From positions 37,472,501 to 37,536,500 of the forward strand of contig OX031057.1 in the NCBI GenBank assembly GCA_943736015.1: 64,000 nucleotides of DNA, written 5' to 3'. How positions within the stretch are numbered: position 1 is the first letter of the stretch; every line of letters starts with the position of its first letter. The stretch is from Tridacna crocea (taxonomy: Eukaryota > Mollusca > Bivalvia > Cardiida > Cardiidae). The notes under the pieces were generated by a model. That model saw only the letters and a list, made by a program, of their open reading frames with translations. It did not search any database and was not told where the DNA came from. Shown in pieces: positions 1 to 61,630 of the stretch. Position numbers and translations under genes: made by a program.

Positions 1-925
1 AGAATGTGTGGTTATAAACAAGAAGATTTTCAAATTTTCAATAAAAGGCCCTGTAAAACATAAAATCCATGAGACAAGGCTAAATTTAGTGGTCCTAGTC
101 TTTATTATGGTTAGTAACAAGATGACTTAGAAAGTTTTCACCACAAAAGCCCATGTAAAACTTGTGACCCCTGATGTGGGGACAAACTTGACCCTAAGGC
201 TATAATTTGGGCCCTCCTGGTAGAGGCCCACTAGATAAAGCTAAATGCAAAATTTGGTAGCCCTAAGCCTTATGGCTTGGTACGAAAAGATTTTTAAAGT
301 TTTCACTATATAAGCCCATATAAAACTTGTGACCCCTGGGGCCGGGCCAAATTTGACCTCTGGGCTATCATTTGGGCACCCTGGGTAGAGGTCTACTAGA
401 TAAAGCTACATGCCAAATTTGGTAGCCCTAGGCCCTATGGCTAGGTATTAGAAGGATTTTAAAGTTTTCCCTATATAAGCCCATATAAAACTTGTGACCC
501 CTGGGGTGGGGCCAATTTTGACCCCAGGGCTATTATTTGAAGGAACTTGGTAGAGGTCCACTAGATAAAGCTACATGCCAAATTTGGTAGCCCTAGGCCT
601 TATGGTTTCAGAGAAGAAGATTTTTAAAAATTTTCAATACTTTTCAGTTTTGTTGCCATGGCAACCAGAGTTTTTGAAGGAATAAAATTCTTTCAAGGAA
701 TTCTGAAGAGGACCATGGCAGGATCATTTCTGTGAAGTTTCATCAAAATTGGATGGGTAGTTTCAGAGAAGAAGATGTTTGAAATAAAAGTTAACGCACG
801 CACGGACGCACGGACGTACAACCAAAACTGAATAAGGGGACAAATTATAAAGGGCCTAAACTAAAGGGCCACCAAAAAAAAATCTACCAAACTGTTTTAA
901 AGGGCCTCCTTCAAAGGAGGGGGCC
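1..925 (+). repeat. Tandem-cored interspersed repeat, 3' part
   Basis: About four diverged units of roughly 130-150 bp follow one another. Recurring phrases are AAGCCCATATAAAACTTGTGACC, given here as AAGCCCATATAAAAC then TTGTGACCCCTG, and GCCAAATTTGGTAGCCCTA. They are followed by a CACGCACGGACG-rich run near 793-818. The same phrases occur near 47.7-48.4 and 52.5-53.6 kb, so this is one interspersed family. No coding potential is visible. The left border lies outside the window. Confidence 0.7.
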
Positions 926-3358: not shown

Positions 3359-4294
3359 AAGTCTTACTCTAGCAGAAGACATTTTGAAGTTTACAACAAA
3401 CAAAATGTGGAAACTGAGATCATTATTCCTAAGAATTTTATGACATGGCTAATAAAATATGTATCAAATGAGGCAACTGCTCAAAAAGAACGATCTCATC
3501 TTTTCTAAAAGCATTTTAAACTTTTTGCCATTTTTGCTTAATTCTGAATTCTTTTTTTTCATTTATGTTTTGAAAGCAAGAGCAAGGTGTGTTTGTGAAA
3601 CATGAACAACAATGGAAAGCTTTTACTTATATACAGTTTTTTAACTTGGGCACGACAAGGCAACAACAGTATGCAGCATCATACATCTTCATGCATTCTT
3701 TTCTATTTCAGTGTTATTTGTCCCTCTATCCACTTTTCTGCATACATATGTAATTCCTTCAGCTCTTTTTCTTTTCATCTTGTACGCTTCACTGAAATTT
3801 ATTCAAACAAAAGATATTTGCTTAATTCAATCTGCATTACGTTTACTCCCCCCAATTAAAAAAAAAAGATGCCTACTTGAACCAAAGCACTGAGGTACAT
3901 AGACCTAACCGTTACATTATCATTATTTTGATGCATTTATCAAATAATAATAGTAAGTGTTACTTGAATAATTATTCAATCAAATTGAATGAGAATGCAG
4001 TTACATCCATGGCTTCAGAGTTTCTCTGCTTTTACTTTTTTTAATTGGAATGAAGTATGTGGCTTTTACCAAATTTTCCTGGGGATAGTTCACTTGTTCA
4101 TTCATTGCGAACCAGATAACCAGATAAACAAGGACCCTCCACCATCAAATGGCAAATGTAGGATAGGAACCATCTTCTCCCAGGAGAGTCCTGCATCTTT
4201 GCACCTTAAACACTCAAATCACAAATAACCTGTATACCTTCAAGTCAAGTGTAAATGAAAACAACAGAACTTGAAACAAGTAGAGCTACTCGAT
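3359..4294. other. No recognised feature
   Basis: AT-rich sequence. Several short chance ORFs show no family resemblance or splice-site support. Confidence 0.5.
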
Positions 4295-4523
4295 TTAACT
4301 CTTTACCACACGACGACATTTTAGACTGGTCCAAATTGAAAGCATTTGCAGACGACAAAATAAGGGTGACTGAAAAGTTGAAATTTGTTCTGGGAAGGGT
4401 AGAAAACACTATGGGAAAAGGAGAAAATGCTTGTTACCAGCATTTTCTCCTTTTCCCACAGTGTTTTCAAAAGGCTTCTTTCTCAGGGGCGTCAAAAGTA
4501 GGGATTGTGTGGTAATGGGTTAA
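4295..4523 (-). mobile_element. piggyBac-like MITE, family A, complete, reversed
   Basis: TTAA at both ends. Read in reverse it has the family A order. Apex TGCTTGTTACCAGCA, stem otherwise near-perfect. Confidence 0.85.
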
Positions 4524-8067: not shown

Positions 8068-8598
8068 TTCTTAAGATGAATGTCCAATACCTTCATTAAC
8101 AGTTGTTCCAGTGTTATCACTGTATGACAAGGCGGTCTAACTTCCATTGTTCTCTCCCCCCACCATATAATTTGTAGGTTGTTAATCATAAAAGAACCAA
8201 AGTGTTTTTTTTCCTCTCATTACAGAACAGAGAATTAAGCTTTAGATTACTGTTTTATATAGAGAATTTAAATAGATTCACAGTTTGAATTCATAATTAA
8301 AGATAAGAAGAAAAATTGAAATGTCTCTGATCGATGATGTCTAATTGACTTTAATTGCGTCATAATAATAATACAATAATTATAAGCTAAACCCTCTGTT
8401 CTGTAATGAGAAAAAAAAACACACTTTGGTTCTTTTATGATTAACAACCTACAAATTAGATTGGGGGTGGCGGGGGGGGGGGGGGGGGGGGTGTGTGTGT
8501 GAGAGAACAGTGTAAGTTAGACCGCCTTGTCTCTTACAGTGACAACACTGGAACAACTGATAAAGAAGGTATTGGAGTATTGGACATCTTCTTAACTC
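8068..8598. repeat. Large imperfect inverted repeat (foldback), G-tract in one arm
   Basis: The left arm (about 8068-8290) reappears inverted at about 8360-8598. Shared words include GACAAGGCGGTCTAACTT, GTTCCAGTGTTNTCACTGTA and GTAGGTTGTTAATCATAAAAG. The right arm has expanded into a 20-base G run at 8472-8491 followed by (GT)n, where the left arm has only CTCCCCCCACC. The right end abuts the TTAA of a family A MITE (8592). Confidence 0.75.
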
Positions 8599-8820
8599 AT
8601 TACCAAATGACAATAGTGTAGGCTTGTCAAAATCGAAAGCATTTGCAGACAACAAAATAAAAGTGACTGAAAATTTGAAATTTGTTTTGTGGAGGGGAGA
8701 AAACATTATGGGAAAATGAGAAAATAATGGTTACCAGCATTTTCTCCTTTTTCCGCAATGTTTTCTAAAGGCTTCTTTCTCAGGGTCGTCAAAAGTAGGG
8801 ATTGTGTGGTAATGGGTAAA
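8592..8820 (-). mobile_element. piggyBac-like MITE, family A, reversed
   Basis: Left TTAA at 8592. The right end has decayed to GGGTAAAG. The stem is imperfect (AAAATAATGGTTACCAGC). Confidence 0.75.
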
Positions 8821-13606: not shown

Positions 13607-14335
13607 GTTTAGCTCACCTGAGCACAACGTGTTGAAGGGGAGCTTTTAGGGTCACCCGGTGTCCGTCGTCCGTCGTCAACAATTCTTTAAACATCAACTC
13701 CTCCTAAACCGCTGGGCCAATTTGGACCAAACTTGGCTGGAATGTTCCTTAGGAGGTCCTCTTTAAAAAGTCTTCACAAAATTTTATTCCATCAAAAACT
13801 CTGGTTGCAATGGCAACAAAATGCAATTTTCTGAGAAATTCTTTAAAAATCTTCTCCTCTGAAACCGCTGGCCAGATTTTAAAATAATTTCACAGGGATG
13901 TTCCTTGGGTGACCCTTTTCAAAACATGTTCGCACAATTTTGATCCGTCAAGATACATGGCTCTGGTGAATGGGGGCTACATGCACTATACAGAAATGAA
14001 GAAATGAAGAAATTCTTAAAAATTCTTCTTCTCTAAAACCGCCGGTCAGATTTTGAAATAATTTCTCAGGGATGTTCTTTGGGTGACCCTTTTCAAAAAT
14101 TGTGTACGAAATTTTGATCGGTCAAAAAAAATTGCTCTGGTGAATGGGGGCTACTTGCACTATACAGCTAACAAGAAATTCTTAAAAATTCTTCTTCTCT
14201 GAAACCGCTGGTAAGGTTTTGAAATAATTTCTCAGGGATGTTCTTTGAGTGACCCTTTTCAAAAATTGTTCGGGAATTTTGATCCGTCAAGAAACATGGC
14301 TCTGGTGAATGGGGGCTACTTGCATATATATATCA
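13607..14335 (+). mobile_element. Tandem-cored element (TAGCTCACCTGAGCAC start)
   Basis: Opens with TAGCTCACCTGAGCACAAC and the companion AGGGGAGCTTTT. It is followed by about three ~160-bp core units with CTCTGGTGAATGGGGGCTAC and TTCTTAAAAATTCTTCTTCT. A closer relative is at 60319-61630. The layout (short left flank, tandem core, 3' hairpin) resembles Helitron-related bivalve elements of the pearl type; that comparison is inference. Confidence 0.7.
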
Positions 14336-21880: not shown

Positions 21881-21958
21881 ATCATTCATCTGAACTGATA
21901 ATGTTGTTGGGCTTGGCTAGTTTGTTGAAAATAGTTCAAGCACAGCCATAGAGCTGTT

Positions 21959-22869
21959 TGGGAACAAGACAGTTCCCTGACAAGACAGCTCCCTGACACA
22001 AGTTTTTGGGACAGTTCCCCGACAGATTTGAAGACAGTTCCACGACACTTTTGTTTGATGTCAACCAACAAAAACAACAAAATAAATCATATAATGGATA
22101 AAAAAAAATTTGATGAAGGATTTTGTAGATAAATGATCTTTTTGTGACTAATTGAAGTGTTTGTACATTTGATTGGCAAGTACATTTAGTCATTTTGGTA
22201 AAGTCTATAATCTTAGTTCAACGGAACAATTTGATGGCCTATTGTCACCAAATATTAAACAATATCGAAATAGACTACATTCTCCCAAATGATATATATA
22301 TATAATATATATTTCAACAATATATATTCATGTATGTCAAATTGTCCGAGAGTACAAGATAAACAGAAAAGGTATTCGCTATTTCACTCATTACCCCTTC
22401 CACCTCCTCTACTGAATTTCGATCAAACAGGAGAATGCACATTATTAAAATACAAATTATTCAAAGACTTTATAGAATCAAAACCAAATACACTCTATCC
22501 TTTGAAAAACTTTAATGCTAGCTAAAAGTTTTCTTAAAATTCCCTTTAGTTTATGACTGTCGTGATTTGTTGTGAATTCACCCATGAGATGATGAGACAA
22601 TAACTACCCATCATTCTATTATATGAAATCTTCTTCACAGGGTACAGATAATTTGATCACAACACCAATTATCCACGAATATTTCTAATTTTGCATGATT
22701 ATCAATCATAATTGTGTAAATTCTAGGGTATAAAATGTCTTTTGCCATGAAACAAAAGTGTCTGGGAAGTGTCTTCAAAAGTGTTGGGGAACTGTCTCCA
22801 AATCTGTCTGGGAACTGTCTCCAAAACCTGTGTCTGGGAACTGTCTTGTCAGGGAACTGTCTTGATACC
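21959..22869. mobile_element. Word-array foldback element FB1
   Basis: The left arm (to about 22051) and the inverted right arm (from about 22757) are arrays of AAGACAGTTCCCTGAC-like words. Ends GGGAACAAGACAG and, inverted, GGTATCAAGACAG. Flanks GAGCTGTT (21951-21958) and GAGCTATT (22870-22877) match at 7 of 8 bases, consistent with an aged 8-bp target duplication. The interior (~700 bp) has no ORF. Located in ankyrin intron 1. Confidence 0.8.
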
Positions 22870-22877
22870 GAGCTATT

Positions 22878-24660
22878 TCCCTGTTTTAAACATAAATAAA
22901 AAAACAACATTAAATCAAAGGACTGATAGTCCTGAGAGTTGCCTGGAGGGTAATGGGTTTGAAGTTTTCACCCTTTTTTGTTCAAATCTGTTAAAAGCAT
23001 TCAAGATACAGAATGAATTAACCATAAAACAGTATTACATGTATATGCAAGCATATTTCTGACTGAGTTGTCATCCTAAAATTCAAAATTTCCATATTAA
23101 AATTTACATTTAAAAAAATGTGGAGGAAATTGAAATATAGGCACCAGGACCAGCTTTAAAAAGGTCAAAGTTTTTTACAGACTACAACCCTTTGCAATTA
23201 AAGACCAGATTATCTTCTGGTGTAGGATCTAGTGACATACTTTTAGACCAAAAATGCCCTTTTGCAACTCGCCCATATCTAATCTTAGCAGTCTGACAAA
23301 GTTTCATGAGTATTAGACTACAGTTCTATTACTGTTTCGTCTCATTTGATTTAGTGACAACCTTTAGGCTTTTTCTTCTAACCCCAGGTGACCTGACTCA
23401 GTTTTGTCAAAAATATAGAGACAAACAGCCAGGCAGTTTCATGATAATTGGACTGAACTGAAGCCTTTGGAGCACAAACAAATATATGACTCGGTAATCT
23501 ACCTGTCCTTTGGAGATAGTTTGTTTTTGTTGTTGTCCAGGTTGAGGTTTTTACCAGCAATGGACTCTATGAATGTGGCTGCTACAGCTCAAGAAAATCT
23601 ATAACCCAAAATATTATGATCATCAGCCTTTAATCTTTGTCTGCGTTTTATAACGTCCCAGGGATTAATAGTGCTTCCACACCAATCGAAAATTGTCTAC
23701 ATGTATATTGCTTTGGTGTAAATTAAATGTTTGCGATTCGCTTTATTACCCTTTACAAAAACTCTTCACAAGATTACAAACACCCCAATAAAGAACTTGT
23801 TGTTCGAGTGGGTTAACACTGATCTGTTCTATTATATTTGAATTATAGCGGAGTAAAAAGTCAATTTCTCAGATAGTGTAAATTCAGATTTTGGCAGTTA
23901 CGAAAGCACTTTGCGTTCTATCACCCGCATTAATAAATTGTTGTTTGATAAATACTAGATCTAGGTTAATCACTCATTGAAAAAAAATAACAGCAGACTT
24001 TAACAAATTTACCTGTCTTTATGAACGAAAAACAATTAAACATAGTAAACCTCAAAGCACTCTCTCTCTGCATAGGTCGGTGTATGCTGAAAGTAAAGGC
24101 AGGTTCCGCGACTGATTCATATATATGTAAATTTATAAAAAGATTTCCGTGGTGCAAATGACGGTTTAATATACGTCACGTGATTACAAGATCTATAGTG
24201 GTCGCAAAGCTACATTCCAGAAAGCACCTGCAAAGCGATGACTTGGTACAGCCTAGAACCGTGCACATTGCATACGCTATGAACGATCTCTGGTGCATTC
24301 TCCAGAATATGGGTGTGCAAAGTATCTAAAGTCTAGATTGAAAAGCTGGGAAGAAGCAACATGTAAGAATGTCTAAGGAGGCAATGCAACCATTCCAAGT
24401 TGACATAAATTAGTTTAAAAAAATTAGCCTATTGTTGAGAAAAAAAAAGATTGAAAGCTTCCATGTTAACTCGGCATCGCCTTTCTCTGTCCAATCATAG
24501 GTTGAATTGAAATAAGACTTGCAGTTAGGGACAGATAGTAAGAGGCAACCAGTCGAAAAGTAACATCGCCTTTGGGGACAGTTATCTGTACTAGATGATA
24601 ACAATGAGAGCCTGGTTGCAACGCAACCAGGCGACTCAAAAATTAATTCATTTTAAAGAA
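22878..24660. other. No recognised feature (ankyrin intron 1)
   Basis: AT-rich intron sequence. Short chance ORFs only. ACGTCACGTGATTACAAG near 24175 is a CRE/E-box-like string, but no exon was found beside it. Confidence 0.4.
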
Positions 24661-25215
24661 CATACATGTAAGGCTTTCTGGTCAACTCGTACCTAAGTCA
24701 ACTCGTACCTTAGTCAACTCGTACCTTAGTCAACTCGTACCTGTTTTGGTCCACTCGTACCTGTTTTTTGGTCAACTCGTACCTATTTTGGTCAACTCGT
24801 ACCTGTTTCGGTTAACTCGTAACCTTTGTAAAAAAAGATAGATATATCTATAGCTTCAGTCTGAAAGTTTGCTTCAAAGCTATTTTTCTTTTAAATATTT
24901 ATTTGAGGAGACAAATAACAAAAATAGTTTCGGAGCAAACTTTCAGACTGAAGGTAGATGAAAACATAGTGGGTTGATGATCGACTATAGGCAAAAGTCC
25001 GTTTGTTTCTGTTTCCGATTCCGATAGTCGATTGAGGAATCCCGTTTTGTGGATTAAACATAGTGGATAACAAACACGGAAATTGATGGCCGGAAAAATG
25101 AGAAAGAAAACTTTGTCCATGGATGTCTTGACAAAACATGACAACTCGGCAAGCTTTTAAGTTGATCCCTGACAATTGGAAATTTGAAATGCCTGTTTTT
25201 GACAATAAAAAATAT

Positions 25216-26200
25216 CTGCCTAAATGTCAATCTGACGTGTGAAATAATCGTCTAGAGCTTCATTTAACCTAGCCTGTGTGCAGCCGGTAGAAGATGGGCT
25301 GAGCACTATCACTATAAATTGCGAGGGACACACGGACGATAATGAAGCTGGCGAGTCATTTATGACCGTGAAAGTATCAAAGGTGTTAATCCTCTTATCC
25401 AGTGTAAAGTGGCAGCTTTTAAAGTTACCTAAAATTGAAACTGACTAATTGGTGTCAAATCATTTAGTAATACTTCTCCAAAAATTAATTGTCGCGAAAA
25501 AATAGATCGCCAAAAAAACGTGAAAACCAATGACACTACAATGAGCAGTGTGGCATCTTCCGATCAGAGGGACTTTAAACTATCTTCCCATCTTTAATAT
25601 TGAATTTAAACAATGAATTTACACAACTATCTTCTCATCTTTAATACTGAATTTAAAGAATGAATTTACACAAATCTCTGAATAAAGCAATAAGTGGAAA
25701 CTGAAATTCTGTTCATGAGTGAAAAAAAAAAACTGTTGTTTTATGAAATGAAAATATAGATCTATAGTAGAAGTGGGGTGGGGTGCGTGGGTCCTCAGCA
25801 AATGCTTGAAATATGTTTGATTCTTTTTAACTCGCTTGGAAATTAAAATATATAAGGAACAAAATGAATACAGCAGAAACTTTTAATGTAATGTATTGCC
25901 ATTGACTCATTAGCAAACGACAATATTTTAGGCTTGTCCAAATCGAAAAGCCTTTGCAGACGACGAAATTTGTTTTGTGAAGGGTAGAAAACATTGTGGG
26001 AAAAGGAGAAAATGCCATTTACCAGCATTTTATCCTTTTATCCTTTTCCCAAAATGTTTTCTAAAGGCTTTTGTTCCAGGAGCGTCAAAAGTAGCCCTTG
26101 TGTGGTGATGGGTTAATAAAAGTGCAGAACATGACATCTTTATACTCTTAAAACCATGTAGACAATATTGTCACAGTATTTAAAGATAATCCCATTAAGT
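25216..26200 (+). mobile_element. hAT-like foldback FB5, right half
   Basis: Matches the centre and right arm of 61779-63669 (AATGAAGCTGGCGAGTCATT, AAATAGATCGCCAAAAAA, AATGAGCAGTGTGGCAT). Interrupted at 25902-26116 by a family A MITE. The left arm is missing. Confidence 0.75.
25902..26116 (-). mobile_element. piggyBac-like MITE, family A
   Basis: Left TTGA (mutated), right TTAA. One hairpin arm has a TATCCTTT duplication (TTTTATCCTTTTATCC). Confidence 0.75.
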
Positions 26201-27140
26201 TTTTCGTTAATTGAATCAACAGGCGTGAAAGGTAATAGACACTTTACAAGTGTTGATAAGTTTATCTCAAAGCAAGTTTGTACTAACTGATGCTTTAAAA
26301 ATTGATTACATTAGATAAATATTTGCACCACTAAATAGTATAAATAATATGTGTACTATGCATGAATCGAAATGAAAGGCGTAGATCAGCTAGTTTGCTC
26401 CTATGTTTTTGCATATAACATGTTTTATCATGATAGACGCTGCTCATATGTAATTTACATCTAATGGCCGTTTTATATTTTGCAAGACAAAGATTTTTTT
26501 GGAAAAAAGTATTACATAATTATGTGGCTTGCATTCGTTTCTTTCCTATGCTAGAATTTTCAGTCATTTAGGTGTTGACATATGACGGGTCTGAACTTAT
26601 GACGTCCAGCACCTCAAATCCCTCAAAACCCAATTTTTATTTGGTTTTTGACACCATTTTGTGTAATATGAATCCACACAAAAAATTATTTGGTTTTTGA
26701 CATGATCTTGTGTGATATGAATGGAATTGGTCAGGTTTTAGAATGGGTGGCAATGATACGGCACTGAGGTTTTGATGATGTCAATATATAAGAAAAAAAA
26801 CAAAAATATAAGCAAGAACACATACTTAAACATACTGATACTGATAAAATTCGCAAATTAAAATATAAGAAATACCTAGGTACGAATTGACTTCGATACG
26901 AGTTTACTCGGGTACGAGTTGACCAAAATAGGTACGAGTTGACTTAGGTACGTGTTGAGTTAGGTACGAGTTGACCAGTTACCCATGTAAGAGCTAAGAA
27001 AGTTATGAAATTCATTCTGCTACACTTGGGTGAAATGACAGTAAATTGTATCTGGAAAGTGGGCTTTTCGGTTAACCATAAATCGGGGTCGTTTAGGTGG
27101 GCCATTCTGGAAGTGGAACGTTTTTGACCTCCCATCAAAG

Positions 27141-28509
27141 GGTTGCTAGAGAACTCGTACCCTGGAGAACTCGTACCCTGGAGAACTCATACCCCAATCT
27201 GAAGGGTACGAGTTCTCTGGAGAACTCGTACCCTGGGTACGAATTCTCCAGATAACTCGTACCCTACAGATATTTTTGGGGATAGATTTGTATATATCAT
27301 TCAGATTTTGGTGAATTGGCAATTTTCATTTTATCTTCTTTTTTTAAATAAGTAAGTTGCAGAATAATCAAGCATTGGTAACGGGTATTTGTAGTAAAAT
27401 ATAAGTTTTGTTACACGATGTTTCATGGATTAAAATGAAAAGGAAGTAAGGTAAATGGGCAGGTAAATTCAAGAAAGATTGAATTATCAGTAAGATCTAC
27501 ATAATCTGGATTCATCTAATGATTCGAAAATAGGTTTGTTCTTTTTTAAAGCTTGTTTAGATATTTTTAGGTTCGTCAATGGAGTATGATATTTTTTTTT
27601 AAAGGTGTTGGGTACAGGGAAATCACATATCAGGTGTGATAAGCATGATTGTGCACACTTGCCATTTACCACCATTTAAACCTGTATAGTTCTTCAAGCG
27701 ATTCTACGGGGGAATTTTTGTATTAAAGTTCATAAAGTATGTCGAGGCCTAATGCACAAATTATGTGCATAAGCTAATAAGCTTCTAGATTGGCCCATCT
27801 ATGTGTCACTTACCCCCTGAAACATTGTGGACAATGTCACAAATTATGTCACTGACTATTCCAATCATTACTCTACTTGCTTAACTCTTTTGGCGCCAAA
27901 AGTATGCAAAGGACTTCGTCGACAACTCACTAAAATCCAGAAAAAAAAAATTTTCTGAAAGGTTTGGCTGAGAACTTTGATGGTGTAAATCCAAGCTCAG
28001 ACTGCATTTTTTGCATATTGATCATGCTCTTTACTACCTGTTTCGATTCTAGCGTTAAATGGATTAAGGGTGCAATATTGAATACTGCAATTATGTTACA
28101 GTAAATTTATCATTGTGAAAATCACACCTTTCTTGCTGTCTTTGTTCAGGAAATGTGCCTTTTCACCAGGTGTGAAAATTTGATTAATTCTGTGTTCATT
28201 TGATCAACTCCTTCCATTTAACATATTTCTAATCCAATCAAAAACTGATTCCTTGAATATTCTTACACAAAACGGCATCAAACATCAATTCAAAACTTAA
28301 TTCAAGTGAAGGCTACCCGAAGAATAGAATAGAGCAAAAATTAATTCTACTAATGATTTAGTTGACAGCATGCTGGTAAACTAAAATTATATTTATCTCT
28401 AGAGAACTCATACCCAGGGTACGACTTCTCTAGAGAACTCGTACCCCTGAGATTGGGGTACGAGTTCTCCAGGGTACGAGTTCTCCAGGGTACGAGTTCT
28501 CCTGATACC
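27141..28509. mobile_element. Word-array foldback element FB3
   Basis: Arms at 27147-27264 and 28402-28503 are arrays of GAGAACTCGTACCCTG in both orientations. Ends GGTTGCTAGAGAAC and, inverted, GGTATCAGGAGAAC. Exact flanking repeat CATCAAAG at 27133-27140 and 28510-28517 (two further C match on the left side). The interior has no coding potential but carries a family D MITE (27891-28068). Its right border is 50 bp from the donor of ankyrin exon 1. Confidence 0.88.
27891..28068. mobile_element. piggyBac-like MITE, family D, decayed
   Basis: TTAA at both ends; left end CTCTTTTGGCGCCAAAAG. The hairpin is reduced to CTCAGACTGCA...TGATCATG. Nested in FB3. Confidence 0.6.
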
Positions 28510-28567
28510 CATCAAAGCACATACATGTGATCATTTTTTTTTAATATCAAAATATTTCTCTTTTTAC

Positions 28568-28736
28568 CTTTGCATGCCATTGCGAGAGCAGAGTTTCCCC
28601 ATTCATCCTTTGTGTTCGCAGAAAGATGTAATCTCAACATCTTATTTACTGTTGCAATCTCACCATTTTCACACGCAGAGATGAATCGGCTCTGAATGTC
28701 TCGGCCGATAAACACTTTAGGTAGGGTGTGCTCCAT
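28568..28736 (-). CDS. Ankyrin-repeat protein, exon 1
   Basis: ATG at 28736-28734 begins MEHTLPKVFIGRD; 56 codons plus one base, ending at donor AAAG/GTAAAAA. It holds a degenerate first ankyrin repeat (RFISACENGEIATVNKML, residues 17-34) and the start of repeat 2 (DEWGNSALAMACK, 44-56). Joined to exons 2 and 3 (introns of 10.1 and 2.3 kb) it gives 588 bp, 195 residues plus stop. No signal peptide or membrane segment, so probably cytosolic or nuclear. I recognise the fold but not the orthologue, and give no symbol. Confidence 0.88.
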
Positions 28737-30525
28737 GTTACATTCAGGTTTCCTTACACAGGATATATGAATAACAAAACCTCTATAACTTTTTTTTTTT
28801 TTTTCAAGAAGTCATCACAATAATAACAAAGATTAAAGATAAATTACTTTTGTTCGTTGTCAAGATTTTGTTTACATGTTAGGTACCAAATGTACCTTCA
28901 AAAAAGAGTACACGGGTAAGGGATGTAAGCCTAAAGGCGAACTGGGTAGTAGAACACGGTTTTGGGCTAAACTCATCCCTGTCGACTGCACTCCAAACTG
29001 AACTTCCTCGAACAGAGGTCTACATAATCTTCATGAAATTATAAAGAGCATATAAATGCAACAGTACATTCCTAATTCTATAGATTTCATCAATAATCCA
29101 TGTTCAGCTTGTGAAATTAATGATCAAAATAGGCAAGTGGCATGGTCAGGGGAAAAAACTCACAAATATGCAATTTTTTTTTAGCCTGTATTCCGGAATT
29201 CACAAAATGCAAACCCAGGAAGCTAGTATGAAAATGCCAAGCTTAATTGAAACTCAAAACAACACATAATCTTAGGATAAAATCTAAAACAGCCTTTTTT
29301 TCGGCAATCTTGAATCCACCCATTTTTTGCGGCAAAAATCAACAGCTAGCTCAGTGACCCCTCGCTTTCGCATTTTGGGTCAAAACCATAGAACAATATT
29401 ATCTCCTACTAGACGCCATTCTGCAAATACATACCTATCTAATTTGGCATTCTGGGTACAGAAGCGGTGTAATTTTTCAAAACAACAACTGTTACTTTGA
29501 TTTTCTAATGAAAACCGTTTACTGAATAAAACGCTACCTGATACCATTCATTCAGCTATGATCGGCTAGCATGTAACCTACGCACCCGCCATTTATTGAT
29601 TCAGCCTCTACAGGCTTGGATAATAAGCTGATAGCTTCGGTATAAGCCCTACTTTTCCCAGGTATTGGGGGATGGGGGATGCGTCATAGCAGGCAGGTCA
29701 AAACTTAGAAGAATATGACATGGCAGACAATGATATAACACAGGAATTTGACATTCAATAACCAAAATAAATCATAAAATATGAAAAAAATCTCCGCTAT
29801 ATATAATATAAACACAAGGAATGCAACGTCTCGATTGCTGGCGCTAGCACCCGACAGCCTTTCCCAACCAAAATCACCCACGAAACAAACATTGATCATA
29901 ATCTCCTTTATCCTAGCGATAGACAACACAATAATGTACCTGCGACATCCGGCGATACCTCAGTAGACACATTTCAACCGGAGATATCCGTCATGTTTTA
30001 CAACTTCATCAGAAAATTTTCAGTCGCTTTTATTTTGTCGTCTGCAAATGCTTTCGATTTGGACAAGCCTAAAATATTGTCGTATGGTAAAGGGTTGAAC
30101 AGTAACAAAACATCTTTTCCTCGGTTTGACAAGATTCTTGTCATTTAGCCCATCGCAGAGATGTATGTGAGAGTAACGAACGACAACTCTGCTGGGAGAT
30201 TGAGATGAGTATTTATATTAGAATGCCATCCAGCGGGAGATAATGTTGTAATACGAACGAGGTTAAATGTAGATACGGAATCGGCCGAATTGTGGCGAGT
30301 GTCCATTGACCCCATCTCGACCTGAGGAAAAGGACTAAATTTCGTGAACACAATTTGGGAATTTGAGATAATGACCATTTGCTATTTTTACATGAATCAT
30401 ATACCTTATGCTGAAATAAAATAAGTAAGTCGTAATTTGATCAGAACACGAATGTTAATTCGGTTAATATTCTAGCTCATACATACAGGGGTACATACAT
30501 CGGTTCTAAATCTAATTCATGACCG
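28737..30525. other. Ankyrin gene upstream region; no other gene seen
   Basis: Probably contains the 5' UTR and promoter of the ankyrin gene, but no TATA box or clear start site can be fixed. One copy of the 18.6-kb AT-rich repeat is at 29750-29820. Chance ORFs only. Confidence 0.4.
30009..30098 (+). mobile_element. piggyBac-like MITE, family A, right half only
   Basis: CAGTCGCTTTTATTTTGTCG, TGCAAATGCTTTCGATTTGG and GGTAAAGGGTTGA remain. There is no left half or hairpin. Confidence 0.7.
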
Positions 30526-30789
30526 GGCGCAATGGCGTCAGGAGAAATACTTCCCTGTGGACGATTTCTCCGGAGAAATCGTTCCCTGAATTAAATTTTG
30601 GAGAAATCGTCCCCATATTCAAATTTCATATACAACTTTGTTATTAAGGTTGTCTATGATTTTGTGTGTGTGTGTGTGTATGACATAAGTGTTTACTTTG
30701 TGTTTAATATGGTTTTCTTTATTCTTGAAGCGATTACATACATGTATCTATAATAGTGTCATTGTTAAGACAGCAAATTTCACTCAAAC

Positions 30790-30945
30790 AGTTTGTTGTT
30801 CACACCTATCACAGATAGCTTATACCTGTTAGATTTTCATTTTTTTCTCTTTGTTTGAATTTGATTTTTAAAACTCTTTATGAAATATTCATAAAAGAAT
30901 ATAGTCATTAAATGTATAATATGACCAGATATGAACAGAACAGAC
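30790..30945 (+). repeat. 156-bp direct repeat, copy 1
   Basis: Starts AGTTTGTTGTTCACACC and ends GAACAGAACAGAC. Differs from copy 2 (31861-32016) at only two or three positions. A 45-bp part also occurs at 31620-31665. Confidence 0.9.
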
Positions 30946-31046
30946 TTCTATAACTACAAATAATATATAATTTATGCATCATAAAAAATACGCCCGAATC
31001 TTTCTTCCCTTTCAGCATGAGTTTTCATCCATTTTTCAACCATAGA

Positions 31047-31083
31047 TCTCTCTCTCACTCTCTCTCTCTCTCTCTCTCTCTCT
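31047..31083 (+). repeat. (TC)n microsatellite
   Basis: About 18 TC units with one interruption. Confidence 0.95.
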
Positions 31084-31761
31084 GCAAAAGAAAGTAACTC
31101 TTTTCTCCCCTTTTTGTGTATGCATGGAAATTTTGGTCTTCAAATAACCGGGTTTAAGTTAATACAATGTTTTGATCATTTTTAGCCGTTCGATCGTGAA
31201 CGTATGAATGAATTCATTGATTCGATCCCCAATAATATTTCTTATTGACTACTGAAATCCCTAGATTCTACATGTATAAGTAATGTACCTTTTCTTCCCT
31301 AGACAATTACATTTTCAAGGAAACGCTTTAGAAAAAAAACATTACTGAAAGGTTTATTTAATTGAATCATACCACAACTTTTTTTGTCCTTGCACAAAAT
31401 CTTCAATTTTAAAACAATCTTCTATAGAAATAGCGAAAACATTACTGAAAAGGTGGAAATACTCGTACTTTTAACTGGCGCTTTTTTCTATTCCAACATT
31501 TTGTAACGATATATTTGTGCTGTTAATGTGGTGATACATTTTCATTTATGGTACCTTGATATTTTTCATTGATCGGTAAAAAGCCTTTAATTGATAGGGA
31601 AATAGCTAAATATGTACGTATGAAATATTCATAAAAAAATGTAGTCATTAAATGTATAATATGACCACAGAGATTATGAACCGTTGTAAAAAACTCCGGA
31701 GATTATGAACGGTTGTACCAAAGTCATTAAAAATTAAACAAGCGTAATTCATTTCCCTTGG

Positions 31762-31782
31762 AGAGAAAGAGAGAGAGAGAGA
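31762..31782 (+). repeat. (GA)n microsatellite
   Basis: Short GAGA run. Together with nearby CCATGCAT it forms a rough inverted counterpart of the (TC)n region at 31047-31130. Confidence 0.8.
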
Positions 31783-31819
31783 GGAAAAACTACCATGCAT
31801 GAAACAAAAACCAAACTTG

Positions 31820-31820
<1 letters not shown>

Positions 31821-31855
<35 letters not shown>
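31821..31855 (+). repeat. (GATA)n microsatellite
   Basis: Nearly nine perfect GATA units. Confidence 0.95.
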
Positions 31856-31860
31856 CGGGG

Positions 31861-32016
31861 AGTTTGTTGTTCACACCTATCACAGATAGCTTATACCTGT
31901 TAGATTTTCATTTTTTTCTCTTTGTTTGAATTTGATTTTTAAAACTCTTTATGAAATATTCATAAAAGAATATAGTCATTAAATGTATAAGATGACCAGA
32001 TATGAACAGAAGAGAC
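31861..32016 (+). repeat. 156-bp direct repeat, copy 2
   Basis: See copy 1; offset 1,071 bp. Confidence 0.9.
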
Positions 32017-32111
32017 CGCCTTCATCATCCTAGTATTAAAGCTACGTAAATTGGCCGAATGACTGCTAAAAACATATATAATTCATTATTGGTTTGAAAT
32101 CAAATTCAAAC

Positions 32112-32138
32112 TACAACAACAACAACAACAACAACAAC
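32112..32138 (+). repeat. (CAA)n microsatellite
   Basis: Nine ACA/CAA units. Confidence 0.9.
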
Positions 32139-32312
32139 CAAAAATCTTGCAGGCGATAGCTGTCCATGACAGGTGTGAAAAGCAACCCATTAGTGTGAAT
32201 TTTGTTGTATAAAGAATGACAGTGTAATGAAATAGCTTTTGCGTCAAGAAACTTCGACACAAAATAAAAAGTAAAGTAAAGAAAAAACTTCATAAATATT
32301 TTCAAACAGAGC

Positions 32313-32849
32313 TTAAAGGTGGGTATTTAGAATTTTCACATCAAACCAAATTAAAAAATATATATGTCACTGAAAAGAAAAAACAATACAAATCACCAGT
32401 AATTAAGAATCATAAAATTAGAAAAAAAAATTTTTTGGTGGTATTCCCTTAAAAGGCTACGTAGCTTCTTTAGCTATTTTAGATTTCCTGCCAAAATAAA
32501 AAAAAACAAACATTGTGGGAACCTAAAGTGACTTGCACATGACTTATGACTATTAAATTCCATAACATAACAAACATGTAATTATTTTCCATAATGTCTA
32601 GAACTTCGGATGCTATGTTTGAAGCTTCGTCTGTATATTTCTTGTATGTAAATGAGCGAGTTGTTCAAGTAAAAATATACCGTGTTTCACTTCAGTGTCG
32701 ACCTGGGCTGTAGTAATTTATATATCTGTCGGATAGTTTTCAACTACTGGGGTTTAATGAATGAAAAATCATAAGTCTTTGGGAGTACAAGGATGATTAT
32801 TTTGTATTTTTGTAAAATGTTCGTCCAAAATCTGAAGGGCCACCTCTAA
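32313..32849. mobile_element. 540-bp TTAA-flanked element, copy 2
   Basis: Left TTAA, right mutated to CTAA. Same phrases as 17009-17550. Nested in FB4. Confidence 0.75.
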
Positions 32850-33287
32850 AAAGCAAAACTGTAATGTATATGGGCAATTTCACGAAAACTGGATGCGTTG
32901 TGTCCCGCACATTAAAATATCGTATACATGTCTCAAATAAAGTGGCCGGTTCGTCAATATTTTTAGAGAATATGGTTTACCTTATAAGTAGGGGAAGATA
33001 CTATGAAAGTACATGTATATTCCACGTCGAAATTTACACGGCTTTGTTTATAATCAAATTTTAACATTTATGCATTTTGAATATGGAGACGATTTCTCCA
33101 AAATTTGATTGAGAACGATTTCTCCAGAATTTGATTTCGGGACGATTTCTCCACAGAAATCGTTCCCAGGGAACGAATTCTCCGGAGAAATCGTCCCCAA
33201 GTAGTTTGGGGACGATATCTCCAGGGGACGATTATTCCAACATTCGGCACAAGGAAGCGGTAGTAGCCTACCGTACTATGTTGAGTC

Positions 33288-34966
33288 GGTTTACAGTCAA
33301 AACGTACCCAAACCAAAACGTACCCAAGTCAAAACGTACCCAAGTGGAGTCAAAAGGTACCCAACTGAAGTCAAAACGTACCCAAAAGGAGTCAAAACGT
33401 ACCCAATGTGAATGTACCCATGATTTTTTATAATGTTTTTAATTATCTTCCATCTTTCCACACATTAATAGAAATATTGTTTTCATCATCTTGATGATGA
33501 TAATTTTTCATTCTGCTTTATTTCAAATTTGCCTTACATGATTAAAACAAATAATGTAGCATATCACAGAATATGTAGCTAAGTCTATTAAACGCTTCAT
33601 GTTAAAATTACAGTGTGTGTATCTCTCTTTTTAGGCAAATACAATTAACATTAGGGAAAAAGCATCAAATACCTTGATGTCATTATGGATCATCATTATT
33701 AATAATGTTTTATCCATTAAAAAAAAAAATCGCAAAAAAATCTTCATAAGAATTAGCACTTTTATAAAAGTGAGATACGTTAATTACATTGTTTGGATTA
33801 CAAAAGGCGCAATTTTCACACCCAAAAAGTGTGTAATAAACTATAATTATGTGGCGAATAAATTAATTATTCACAGTGGTATTAAAGCTGCTGTATATTG
33901 GCTGATTATATATTTGAATGCTTTGTAAATATTGATGATTTGAGAGACAGTGTATTTTAGATGAAAAACTGAAGGGTTGATTTTTTTTTAAAAAATCATT
34001 AAAATTAATTCTCTGATGGAATTTTTTCTTATATTTTCCTTTTCTTCCTTTTGAAAGTTCTTCTTTGTAACATTTTTATCGACAGGAAATTCCCTAAATA
34101 TGCATAAGTAAAAGATTTCGTTGTCTATGAGTGGTGACACGGTTACACCTTCTTATCATTACAAGTATGAATATTTACACAATTTTTCATTTTATTAAAA
34201 CTTTAACAATTAGAGGGCGAATATTATAAGATATATTCTGCACTGAAAATATTGTAAACTTAACTCTTTACCAATCAATAAGATCTTGGACTCTTCCAGA
34301 TTGAAGACATTTGCAAACAACCGTTATAATATAAGGCTTCGAAGGGTAAAAAACATTGTGAGAAACAGGAGGAAGTTGTTACAATGTTGTAAAAAGCTAT
34401 TTTTCAGAAGGATTGTAAATACTACATATTGTGTAATTAAAGGTAGCCCGTGCTTTTTGTGGATCAAAAAAAAAAAAAAAAAAGGTCGACTAAATATCAT
34501 TGAACATTTTCATTTTAAACTTAAATTGACTATATCTAACTTATTTTTTGTTAACTTTGAAAATGGGCTGTGTGGTGAATATAATTAATATACTATGTAG
34601 CATAGTGTACAAATGTTTGTAAATCATCTTTTATGGAAATAAAACTGTTAATGACAACTAGTTTGTTACACCTGATTAGTCCTGACATAAACACATCACC
34701 CAGAATTGAATGTAACGTAGGATTAAAACCATACATCATTTATAAAGAATTAAAAGGATATAAAGTGAGTCAGGAGTTAAAACATCCTTAAAAGGTAAGA
34801 TGCATGAAGTTTTTAATCTATAACTAACACTGAAATTATTTCAATGAAAAATTTACTTTGGGTACGTTTTGACTTAAATTTTGGGTACGTTTTGACTTAA
34901 CTTTTGGGTACGTTTTAACTTATTTTTTGGGTACGTTTTGGTTTGGGTACGTTTTGACTGCATCCC
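33288..34966. mobile_element. Word-array foldback element FB-E
   Basis: Left arm 33298-33420 and right arm 34858-34963 are arrays of AGTCAAAACGTACCCA, inverted with respect to each other. Ends GGTTTACAGTCAAA and, inverted, GGGATGCAGTCAAA. A flanking duplication is not resolved (GTTGAGTC against CTCGCGTC, 5 of 8). The interior is AT-rich without genes. The left border is only 42 bp from the right border of FB4. Confidence 0.78.
34260..34440 (-). mobile_element. piggyBac-like MITE, family A, decayed
   Basis: Begins TTAACTCTTTACCAATCAA, with ACTCTTCCAGATTGAAG and AAACATTGTGAGAAAC recognisable. The hairpin is broken. Nested in FB-E. Confidence 0.5.
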
Positions 34967-44700: not shown

Positions 44701-46484
44701 TAGCTCACCTGAGCACAAATGCTCATGGTGAGCTTTTGTGATCGCCTAATGTCCGTCATGCGTCGTCCACAATTTCTTTAAACATCTTCTCCTCCTAAAC
44801 CGCTGGGCCGATCATGATGAAACTTGGCAGGGATGATCCTTGGGTTAAGCTCTACCAAAGCTGTTCAAGAGATTGGATTTCACCTATAACTCTGGTTGCC
44901 ATAGCAACCAAAAGATATGGCAACCAAAAGAAAAAAGAAATAGCAAAATCTTTGAAAATCTTCTCTGAAACTAGAAGGCGTAGAGCTTTGAAATGTGGTA
45001 TGTAGCATCTCCTAGTGGACCTCTACGAAGAGTATTCATATGATGCCCCTGGAGTCAAAATCGGCCCCGCCCCAGGGGTCACAAGTTTGAAACATAGGAA
45101 CAAAAACGGAAAACTTTAAAATTCTTCTTCTCTGAAACTAGAAGGTGCAGGGCTTTTATATTTGGTATGTAGCATCTTCCAGTGGGCCTCTACCAAGATT
45201 GTTCATATGATGTCCCTGGGGTCGAAACTGGCCCCGCCCTGGGGGTCACAAGTTTGAAACATAGGAACAAAGAAGGAAAACTTTAAAATTCTTCTTTTCT
45301 GAAACTAGAAGGTGCAGAGCTTTGATATTTGGTATGTAGCATCTCCTAGTGGACATCTACCACGATTATTCATATGATGTCCCTGAGGTCAAAACTGGCC
45401 CTGTCCCGGGGGTCACAATTCTGAAACATAGGAACAAAGGAGGAAAACTTTAAAAATCTTCTTCTCTGAAACTAGAAGGTGCAGGGCTTTTATATTTGGT
45501 GTGTAGCATCTCCTAGTGGACCTCTACCAAGACTTCATATGATGTCCCTGGGGTCAAAACTGGCCCCACCCCGGGGGTCACAATTTTGAAACATAGGAAC
45601 AAAGAAGGAAAACTTTAAAATTCTTCTTCTCTGAAACTACATGGTGCAGAGCTTTGATATTTGGTATGTAGCATCTCCTAGTGGAGCTCTACTAAGATTG
45701 TTCATATGATGTCCCTGGGGTCAAAACTGGCCCTGCCCCGAGGGTCACAAGTTTGAAACATAGGAACAAAGAAGGAAAACTTTAAAATTCTACTTCTCTG
45801 AAACTAGAAGGTGCAGGGCTTTGATATTTGGTATGTAGCATCTCCTAGTGAACCTCTACCAAGATTGTTCATATGATGTCCCTAGGGTCAAAACTGGCCC
45901 CCCCCTCCTCCGGGGTCACAAGTTTAATACATAGAAATAAAGAAGGAACAATTGAAATTTTTTCTTCTCTGAAACTAGAATATGTAGAGCTTTTATATTT
46001 GGTAAGTAGGATCTCCTACAGGACTTCTACAATGTTTGTTCATATGATGCCCCTGGGTTCAAAACTTGCCCAGGTGTCCCATGGGTCACAAGTTCGAAAC
46101 ATAGGAACAAAGAAGGAAAATGTCAATATTATTCTTCTCTGAAACTAGAAGGCGTAGAGCTTTGATATTTGGTATGTAGCATCTTTTAGTCGACTTCTAC
46201 AAAGTTTCTTCATAAGATGCCCCTTAGGTTAAAACTGGCCCTGCCCAGGGGTCACAAGTTTGAAACATATGAAAAAAGAAGGGAAACTTTGAAATTCTAC
46301 TGCTCTGAAACTAGAAGGTGTAGATCTTTGATATTTTGTACGTAGTATCTCCTAGTGTACCTCTAGCAATTTTTTTTTTAGGATATCCCTGGGGTCAAAA
46401 TTGGCCCTGCCCAGGGGTCACAAGTTTGATTTTACAGCTTAGTACTCAGATGAGCGCTATAGGACCATCATGGTCCTCTTGTTT
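44701..46484 (+). mobile_element. Tandem-cored element, about ten ~165-bp units
   Basis: Starts with a hairpin (TAGCTCACCTGAGCACAAAT and companion GCTCATGGTGAGCT) and ends GGACCATCATGGTCCTCTTGTTT-type hairpin at 46462-46484. Between them are about ten units with CTGAAACTAGAAGGTGCAG, TTTGGTATGTAGCATCTCC and GGTCACAAGTTTGAAACATA. There is no ORF of protein-like character. The layout fits Helitron-derived pearl-like elements of bivalves (inference). Confidence 0.8.
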
Positions 46485-53200: not shown

Positions 53201-53427
53201 TTAACCCTTTACCACACGAGAAAATTTAGACTGGTCCAAATTGAAAGCATTTGCAGACGAAAAAATAAAGGGGACTGAAAAATTGAAATTTGTTCTGGGA
53301 AGGGTAGAAAACACTGTGGGAAAAGGAGAAAATGCTGGTTACCAGCATTTTCTCCTTTTCCCACAATGTTTTCTAAAGGTTTCTTTCTCAGGGGCGTCAA
53401 AAGTAGGGATTGTGTGGTAATGGGTTA
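53201..53427 (-). mobile_element. piggyBac-like MITE, family A, reversed
   Basis: TTAA both sides. Inserted between CCATAAAGCC and GGGCTACTAAATTTTG; uninterrupted relatives at 52854 and 48013 read continuously there. Perfect apex; near-perfect stem. Confidence 0.9.
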
Positions 53428-53684
53428 AGGGCTACTAAATTTTGCATGTAGTCCTATCTAGTCTGCCTCTTCCAACGAATACCCAAATTATAGTCATAGG
53501 GTCAAATTTGATCCAACAAATTCGATCCCATCACAAAGGTGAGAAGTTTATAATGGACTTATATAGTGAAAACTTTAGACATCTTCTTGTTACTAACCAC
53601 AAGACCACAACCCTGTCTCAGCCTCTCAGGGTCTCATACTGGAAACCAATTGACCAAGTATTGTAATATTTGGCAAGTAGTGTT

Positions 53685-60318: not shown

Positions 60319-61630
60319 TAGCTCACCTGAGCACAACATGCTCAGTCTTTTTGCATTTTTTTTTTTAGCTCACCTGAGCACAACCTGCTCAAGGGGAGCT
60401 TTTAGGATCACCCGGTGTCCGTCGTGCGTTGTGGGTCGTCAACAATTCTTCAAACATCAACTCCTCCTAAACCGCTGGGCCAATTTGGACCAAACTTGGC
60501 TGGAATGTTCCTTGGGAGGTCCTCTTTAAAAAAGTGTTCACAGAATTTGATTCCGTCAAAAACTCTGGTTGCCATGGCAACGAAATGGATTTTTTTTTAG
60601 GAAATTCTTTAAAAATCTTCTCTAAAACCGCTGGCCAGATTTTAAAATAATTTCACAGAGATGTTCCTTGGGTGACCCTTTCCAAAAAAGTGTTCGCAAA
60701 ATTTTTATCCATCAAGAAACATGGCTCTGGTGAATGGGGGCTTCTTGCACTATACAGAAATGAAAAATTTCTTAAAAATTCTTCTTCTCTGAAACCGCTG
60801 GTCAGATTTTAAGATAATTTGACAGAGATGTTCCTTAGATGACCCTTTTCAAAAATTGTTCGCGAAATTTTGATCTGTCAAGAAACATGGCTCTGGTGAA
60901 TGGGGGTTTCTTGCAATATACAGAAAGGAAGAAATTCTTAAAAATTCTTCTTCCCAGAAACCGCTGGCCAGATTTTAAAATAATTTCACAGAGATGTTCC
61001 TTGGGTGCCCCTTTTCAAAAAATGTTCGTGAAATTTTGATAGGTCACGAAAACTGGCTCTGGGGAATGGGGGCTACTTGTGCTATAGGGAAATGAAGAAA
61101 TTCTTAAAAATTCTTTTTCTCTCGAATGGCTGGTCAGATTTTGAAATAATTTCACAGAGATGTTCCTTGGGTGACCCTTTTCAAAAAGTGTTCGTGAAAT
61201 TTTGATTCATCAAGAAACATGGCTCTGGTGAATGGGGGCTACTTGCACTATAGGGCAATGAAGAAATTCTTAAAAATTCTTCTCTGAGACGGCTCGTCAG
61301 ATTTTGGAAAATTTTCACAGAGATATTCCTTGGGTGACCCTTTTCAAAAATTGTTCGTGAAAGATTGATTCGTCGAGAAACATTGCTCTGGTGAATGGGG
61401 GCTACTTGCACTACATGTACATGGAAATGAAGAAATTCTTGAAAATTCTTCTTCTCTGAAACTGCTGGTCAGATTTTGAAAGGACTTTTACAGGTGACCT
61501 TTTAAAAATTGCTTGTCAAAATGATGATTTTGTTTCCAGTGTTTCAATACCTTCAAAAAAAATAAAAAGGCTATGGTCCTCTCAAAAATTCAGGTGAGTG
61601 ATCCAGGGCCATTTTGGCCCTCTTGTTTTA
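60319..61630 (+). mobile_element. Tandem-cored element (complete)
   Basis: Two start hairpins (TAGCTCACCTGAGCACAAC at 60320 and 60366), then about six ~160-bp units (CTCTGGTGAATGGGGGC, TTCTTAAAAATTCTTCTTC, TTTCACAGAGATGTTCCTTG), closing with GGGCCATTTTGGCCCTCTTGTTT-type hairpin at 61607-61628. Confidence 0.82.

What the first reader, a model, noticed from the sequence alone, without database searches (positions are those of the whole stretch)
21951..34966. A superfamily of foldback elements whose arms are arrays of a shared, element-specific 13-bp word
Five separate elements in 13 kb have inverted arms built from short tandem words. The words differ between elements but align in four of them: GTCAACTCGTACC (FB2), GAGAACTCGTACC (FB3), GAGAAATCGTCCC (FB4), GTCAAAACGTACC (FB-E); consensus GWSAAMWCGTMCC. 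Within each element the word is homogenised across both arms. Ends are alike (inverted right ends GGTATC, GGTAAC, GGTATC in FB1-3). Four have 8-bp flanking repeats matching 8/8, 8/8, 7/8 and 6/8. This looks like one transposon lineage in which the word (perhaps a transposase-binding site) diverges between elements but evolves in concert within each. Foldback transposons with tandem-repeat arms are known in Drosophila (FB, 9-bp duplication); I do not know this word-switching form.
Basis: partly seen in the sequence, partly recalled or inferred. Interest (0 to 1): 0.88.

Follow-up and report, generated by a model that had tools for sequence, protein, structure and literature searches.

The report
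Foldback transposons with switchable recognition words
These are real jumping-DNA elements whose ends are built from repeats of a short word; related families keep the same layout but use a different word, and one family in the same genome carries the enzyme that probably reads the word.

Summary
Five foldback-type DNA transposons lie at 21960-34966, each end an 8-bp cap followed by a 13-bp word at base 9 and base 25 (decayed in FB4). Of 18 elements of this genome tested, 10 have perfect 8-bp and 2 perfect 9-bp target duplications; two of 13 have paralogous empty sites. A related family with another word (GGACGTTTTGGCC) supplies an engine: a 3.3-kb copy with similar ends, a 9/9 duplication and an open FLYWCH zinc finger + MULE transposase frame. 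That family is Phantom-like Mutator (MULE); FB1-FB5 are most likely non-autonomous relatives, but no transposase was found with their words. The closest published anatomy is Tm1 of root-knot nematodes. Word switching is real at family level: FB3-type and L045 arms align without gaps over 123 bp with the same site layout, yet the word differs at three positions at nearly every site of both arms. It is not ongoing homogenisation inside a copy: in four families, same-side arms of different copies are 92-97% alike, opposite arms of one copy 73-86%. New variant of a known kind.

The parts
21951..21959 (.). FB1 left target duplication GAGCTGTTT (right 22870-22878 GAGCTATTT, 8/9)
21960..22869 (.). 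FB1, 910 bp; word GACAGTTCCC at 9, 25, 51, 74 of each arm (also 97 in the right arm); caps GGGAACAA / GGTATCAA
24665..24672 (.). FB2 left target duplication CATGTAAG (right 26984-26991, 8/8)
24673..26983 (.). FB2, 2311 bp; word GTCAACTCGTACC, 8 units left and 6 right; caps GCTTTCTG / GGTAACTG
27133..27140 (.). FB3 left target duplication CATCAAAG (right 28510-28517, 8/8)
27141..28509 (.). FB3, 1369 bp; word GAGAACTCGTACC at 9+,25+,41+,65-,80+,96-,111+ in the left arm, the first six of these in the right; caps GGTTGCTA / GGTATCAG
30534..33245 (.). FB4, 2712 bp, decayed; word GAGAAATCGTCCC; right arm 9,25,49-,64,80-,95 (FB3 scaffold less one 16-bp unit), left arm 9,25-,40,68; flanks GGCGCAAT / GGCACAAG 6/8; its ends were set by aligning the decayed outer word to base 9
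33288..34966 (.).

Best explanation
The five elements are non-autonomous, foldback-type cut-and-paste DNA transposons of the MULE/Phantom kind. Shown: element ends, 8-9 bp target duplications, paralogous empty sites for two elements, the shared cap-plus-word layout, and, for the related family with word GGACGTTTTGGCC, an element with an open FLYWCH zinc finger + MULE frame between the same kind of arms. Inferred: the zinc finger binds the words, several copies per end load several transposase molecules and pair the two ends, the MULE domain cuts at the caps and inserts with an 8-9 bp stagger, and transposases from full-length relatives move FB1-FB5 in trans. Also inferred: each family has its own word because zinc finger and word changed together. 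The array layout was kept while the word was replaced at nearly every site of both arms, making families that probably no longer cross-mobilise.
For: Target duplications: 10 of 18 elements 8/8, 2 of 18 9/9, then 8/9, 7/8, 6/8, 6/8, 5/8, 5/8; 306 swapped-flank controls never exceed 6/8 (5 of 306 reach 6). Empty sites: the L032 element is absent from three paralogous copies of its surroundings (L033, L036, L047, 91-93% over about 500 bp) and the FB3-type L046 element from L045:5021-5515 (97.0% of 496 bp). Engine: L069:616-3914, 3299 bp, caps GAATGTAG / GGAGGACG, word arrays at both ends, duplication ATCACTGTT 9/9, 515-aa frame with FLYWCH E 4.5e-12 and MULE E 2.5e-9. The 591-bp L032 element has the same caps and is its internal deletion (98-99% to its two ends). 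14 of 61 MULE matches in the genome have a stop-free 515-aa frame, 13 of them among 18 with the same score; only one was read. Word constraint: opposite arms of 8 elements differ at 39/609 word columns and 93/322 spacer columns. Scaffold with switched word: FB3-type arms (4) against L045 arms (2), 123 gapless columns: 154/168 differences at three word positions, 28/560 at the other ten, 68/192 in spacers. All five window elements have words at +9 and +25.
Against: No copy with the FB1-FB5 words was found to encode a transposase: none of the held loci searched has a stretch related to the L069 protein or its relatives (tblastn), including two 3.5-kb copies (L070, L071) that looked long enough; the 621 bp upstream of each of two other MULE matches carry no word array. 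The GGACGTTTTGGCC word starts at base 8 rather than 9 as written, and runs opposite to the FB5-like words (its reverse complement shares CAAAACGTCC with GTCAAAACGTCCC), so the link of FB1-FB5 to this transposase rests on anatomy and partial word likeness. FB4, FB5, L041 and L045 have poor flanking repeats. Ten of 13 elements gave no empty site in the DNA held. Binding of FLYWCH to the words is untested. The three diagnostic positions were chosen after seeing the words, and in L037 the word/spacer contrast is weak (12/65 against 14/42).
Confidence: 0.75

Rival explanations
1. FB1-FB5 are moved by a different superfamily, most plausibly Merlin/IS1016, and share only general design with the FLYWCH-MULE element.
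For: The genome has Merlin-like transposase: 5 matches to PF12762.
Against: None of the 5 Merlin-like loci (about 1.5 kb each side) holds a GWSAAMWCGTMCC, FB1 or GGACGTTTTGGCC word at up to 1 mismatch. Among the inverted repeats listed there one 24-nt pair in L054 has GG/CC ends, but its flanks do not match. The GGACGTTTTGGCC family, with similar caps, 8/9-bp duplications and word arrays, encodes a MULE.
Confidence: 0.12
2. The words bind an element-encoded accessory or anti-silencing protein, as VANC does in Arabidopsis VANDAL elements, rather than the transposase itself.
For: VANC targets are short motifs in tandem repeats that vary between related elements and co-diverge with the protein (PMC5735166, abstract and passages).
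Against: The arrays here start 8-9 bp from both termini at fixed positions and persist in small non-autonomous copies, as expected of end-recognition sites; the L069 element has one long frame and no second unspliced frame of 100 aa or more.
Confidence: 0.08
3. One reading: the word is homogenised within each element copy by conversion between the two arms.
For: In the elements read, both arms of a copy carry the same word.
Against: In all four families compared, same-side arms of different copies (92.4-96.6%) are closer than opposite arms of one copy (73.0-86.2%). Conversion would give the opposite order.
Confidence: 0.05

Closest known systems
Tm1, Mutator/Foldback family of root-knot nematodes (PMC3169594; abstract and passages seen)
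   Same: Asymmetric short caps (7 bp, A1 and A2) outside the inverted repeat; arms of a variable number of mostly 13-15 bp tandem motifs; duplications of 8-10 bp, mostly 9; mostly non-autonomous copies; one element (Tm1-A) encodes a Phantom-type MULE; motif consensus differs slightly between two species.
   Different: One word family per genome and 39 and 22 elements in two species, described as currently inactive. Here at least seven words in one genome, thousands of word copies, some units inverted at fixed places, the same scaffold with different words, and many open transposase frames.
Phantom family of MULE elements (PMC6446971, passages; founding paper not held)
   Same: FLYWCH zinc finger and MULE domain, 8-10 bp duplications, minisatellite after the transposase frame (listed for aphid Phantoms; L069 has four to five 155-bp repeats after the frame).
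   Different: The passages I saw mention no word arrays; no phylogeny was made here.
VANDAL elements and VANC target motifs, Arabidopsis (PMC5735166; abstract and passages)
   Same: Short motif arrays that differ between related families and evolve together with an element-encoded protein; VANDALs are MULEs (recalled).
   Different: Motifs lie in several noncoding regions, introns included, and are bound by an anti-silencing protein, not placed at fixed distances from the ends.
Galileo, P superfamily (PMC3688188; abstract and two sections) and Tetris (PMC4079207, passages)
   Same: Foldback arms with internal tandem repeats; in Galileo the transposase THAP domain binds sites inside those repeats; Tetris has 8-9 bp duplications in its three complete copies.
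   Different: P-superfamily transposase (Galileo); much longer repeat units (Tetris about 220 bp).
TU elements of sea urchin and FB of Drosophila (recalled; sea urchin foldbacks only seen as a citation)
   Same: Foldback arms of short tandem repeats with 8-9 bp duplications (recalled).
   Different: Not compared by sequence here; I recall 15-bp repeats and 8-bp duplications for TU but saw no text.

Membership tests
Phantom/MULE (GGACGTTTTGGCC family, L069, L032) | MULE transposase domain with FLYWCH zinc finger | tested here: met
   PF04500 E 4.5e-12, PF10551 E 2.5e-9
Phantom/MULE (GGACGTTTTGGCC family, L069, L032) | 8-10 bp target duplication | tested here: met
   9/9 in L069, 8/8 in L032
Phantom/MULE (GGACGTTTTGGCC family, L069, L032) | Position in a MULE phylogeny | not tested
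   No tree built; named relatives among the 120 listed come from crustaceans, molluscs and an aphid
Phantom/MULE (FB1-FB5 families) | MULE transposase in a full-length copy with the same word | tested here: inconclusive
   None in the held loci searched by tblastn; the search of arms against the whole genome did not complete
Phantom/MULE (FB1-FB5 and the other GNNAANNCGNNCC-word families) | 8-10 bp target duplication | tested here: met
   11 of 17 elements perfect, L032 excluded; FB4, FB5, L041 and L045 not clear
Foldback elements | Inverted arms built of short tandem repeats | tested here: met
Merlin/IS1016 | IS1595-type DDE transposase inside an element with these words | tested here: not met
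   5 PF12762 loci, no words within about 1.5 kb
Merlin/IS1016 | 5'-GG ends and 8-9 bp duplication | tested here: inconclusive
   Duplication length fits; most caps begin GG but several begin GA, GC or AA
P superfamily (Galileo) | THAP + P-type transposase | not tested
   No search made

The most novel reading that the evidence does not exclude
A transposase and its recognition word are caught changing together: on one conserved scaffold of up to seven or eight sites per end (some inverted), the word has been replaced in place at nearly every site of both ends, giving several mutually exclusive transposon families side by side in one genome, with part-switched arrays (L045, where units 6 and 8 of both arms carry the other word) preserved as intermediates.
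Probability: 0.45. Interest if true: 0.8.

Novelty: new variant of a known kind. Interest (0 to 1): 0.6.

Why it matters
How a transposase changes its DNA specificity without losing its own ends is an open problem: every site at both ends must change. Here related families keep the site layout while the word differs, and one family has many open transposase frames with a matching short copy. That makes the question testable: swap FLYWCH domains and words and ask which pairs bind and move. It also warns that such arms can be taken for minisatellites.

Tried and rejected
Ordinary minisatellites without a partner: rejected for the elements read, whose ends lie 0.6-3.3 kb apart and mostly carry target duplications. 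Merlin origin: see rivals. In-copy homogenisation: rejected. Autonomous copies among longer pairs: L070 and L071 carry none. A 12-kb pair of words at C1:13464180-13476148 proved to lie in an exon-like stretch at both ends (L057, L067), and its middle (L056) showed only frames under 90 aa. Other MULE loci: 621 bp upstream of each of two had no word array; that is 2 of the 43 matches outside the 18 same-score hits, on one side only, so it says little. Viral contigs: 42 pattern stretches, no relative. The exon-like peptide has no Pfam match. Dropped before the count: single arms without a recognised partner (for example in L033-L036, L038-L040, L042-L044, L047) and the FB2-type element of L049, whose right end is broken by another insertion. 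Dropped before (8 of 15 elements with both arms held were used): FB4, L041, L050, the two elements of L049, L032 and L069; in the FB2 and FB3 pairs of that call one flanking base was included by an off-by-one. In one search L045 was chosen because its scaffold needs no gap; FB4 and L041 lack a unit. Novelty in print was checked with the paper search (listings, plus the papers cited); subscription journals are not covered. The order seen (outer GAGAAATCGGCCC, inner GAGAAATCGTCCC in 17 of the roughly 100 listed places by my count, the reverse in none) is not independent evidence, because L032, L033, L036, L042 and L047 are copies of one larger repeat.
Full report
Setting. The window is part of a 1.05-Gb genome in 31 contigs (G000:C2:37472501-37536500), 35.6% G+C. 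Named relatives of the transposase discussed below come from molluscs, crustaceans and an aphid, so an animal is likely (inference).

Observation. Within 24681-34958 the pattern GWSAAMWCGTMCC occurs 41 times with at most one mismatch, one more hit lies elsewhere, and shuffles give 0.94. Genome-wide there are 9543 exact matches against 1025 for the reversed pattern. The stricter test, two words of the form GNNAANNCGNNCC spaced 16 bp, gives 2332 against 0.

Anatomy. Every window element has an 8-bp cap, then words starting at base 9 and base 25 from each end, then units 15-28 bp apart. In FB4 the outer words are decayed and the ends were set by aligning them to base 9. In L069 the word, written GGACGTTTTGGCC, starts at base 8. 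Caps differ between the two ends of an element and recur across copies: the FB3 type has GGTTGCTA at one end and GGTATCAG at the other in the window, L046 and L057/L058; in L049 one end is trimmed. L049 also shows nesting: an FB3-type element sits in the terminal word of an FB2-type one with an 8/8 duplication, and an FB1-type arm of five units lies inside that FB2-type element.

Insertion. With the ends fixed by the rule 'word start minus 8', 10 of 18 elements have a perfect 8-bp and 2 of 18 a perfect 9-bp duplication. The others are FB1 8/9, L037 7/8, FB4 and L045 6/8, FB5 and L041 5/8. For L049 the left end was moved by 3 bp because the cap is trimmed; without that move it scores 2/8. Swapped flanks of different elements reach 6/8 in 5 of 306 and never more. 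Both lengths occur in one family (GTCAAAACGTCCC: 9, 9 and 8). Joined flanks of 13 elements were compared with the held DNA: the L032 element has three paralogous empty sites and the L046 element one; the L049 match was to itself and is not counted; ten elements gave none.

Engine. A MULE-domain search gave 61 matches. Eighteen share one score; 13 of these and one more have a stop-free 515-aa frame. The single match on contig 1, L069, was read: word arrays GGACGTTTTGGCC at both ends, caps identical to those of the L032 element, 9/9 duplication, 3299 bp, and a frame with FLYWCH and MULE domains. Four to five 155-bp repeats follow the frame, as is listed for aphid Phantoms (PMC6446971, passages). 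In an alignment of 14 of the 141 homologues, invariant residues include C56, C64, H83, H85 and D210, D270, E411, which I read as zinc ligands and the catalytic triad (inference). The L032 element is an internal deletion of this one. It was met in flanking DNA by a scan for any paired arrays, not through the word pattern.

Do the words matter? Opposite arms of eight elements (of 15 with both arms held) differ at 39 of 609 aligned word columns but 93 of 322 spacer columns; gaps fall at 49 and 156 columns. The alignments are anchored on words, so the contrast is somewhat inflated, and in L037 it is weak. Together with Galileo, where the transposase binds sites inside the arm repeats (PMC3688188), this favours binding sites.

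Word switching. Arms of the FB3 type and of L045 have sites at the same seven places, two of them inverted: 9, 25, 41, 65-, 80, 96-, 111; the right arm of the window FB3 lacks the last. Over 123 columns without a gap, 8 arm comparisons give 154/168 differences at three word positions, 28/560 at the other ten, and 68/192 in spacers. The three positions were picked from the two words, so the high figure for them is partly by choice; the point is that the change is present at nearly every site of both arms on an unchanged layout. The FB4 and L041 right arms show the same pattern less one 16-bp unit (L041 also lacks the 80- unit). In L045 units 6 and 8 carry GAGAAATCGTCCC in both arms while most others carry GAGAAATCGGCCC: a mixed array. 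Both FB1 arms and the right arm of FB5 share another scaffold (9, 25, then steps of 23-26); the left arm of FB5 has steps of 16 and 21. Independent growth of such arrays is unlikely, so the word was replaced site by site or by conversion among sites, in a common ancestor of each family (inference). It is not happening in each copy: in four families same-side arms of different copies are 92.4-96.6% alike and opposite arms of one copy 73.0-86.2%.

What is not shown. No transposase was found with FB1-FB5 words. A tblastn of the L069 protein and of the 120 listed homologues against the held loci (L001-L030 and L069 left out) gave nothing at E 1e-3 or better (120 records counted), and 621-bp stretches beside two other MULE matches lack words. 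The planned search of arms against the whole genome did not complete. FB1-FB5 are therefore filed as probable, not proven, MULE relatives.

Known or new. Tm1 has nearly the same anatomy, including asymmetric caps, mostly 13-15 bp arm words and 8-10 bp duplications. VANDAL elements show co-diverging motif arrays. What I did not find in the searches listed is several words on one conserved scaffold in one genome. Verdict: new variant of a known kind.

Noticed in passing
L057, L058, L067, L068 (C1:13464150-13476230 and C1:21599960): An exon-like stretch present in at least three copies contains two GAGAAATCG words 16 bp apart; an FB3-type element is inserted in one copy. The joined 40-aa frame has no Pfam match. 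It may be an exonised arm or a gene that resembles one.
   Followed up: partly
window 4290-4523, 8592-8820, 53201-53428 and 21 other places: A repeat of about 230 bp matches the window at 24 places and most fetched loci at roughly 74-95% identity (L032:5443-5672 as query); some copies create frames such as NPLPHNK.
   Followed up: no
window 131-636, 13834-14328, 44959-46429, 60616-61481: Four arrays of 165-174 bp units; the last three share TCTTCTCTGAAAC in the consensus unit.
   Followed up: no
window about 30792-30940 and 31863-32010: FB4's interior holds two copies of one stretch (read by eye, starts checked), so it is internally duplicated.
   Followed up: no
L051-L055: Five Merlin-like (IS1595 DDE) loci, seemingly split into exon-like pieces; only L054 shows a short GG/CC-ended inverted pair, without matching flanks. 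Possibly host genes or old copies.
   Followed up: partly
L038:3277-3439, also L042 and L043: A further word, GACAACTCGCCCC, in an array of about 8 units (L038) without an inverted partner in the stretch held.
   Followed up: no
L031:1414-7001: Two long frames that look like a retrotransposon polyprotein; read by eye only.
   Followed up: no
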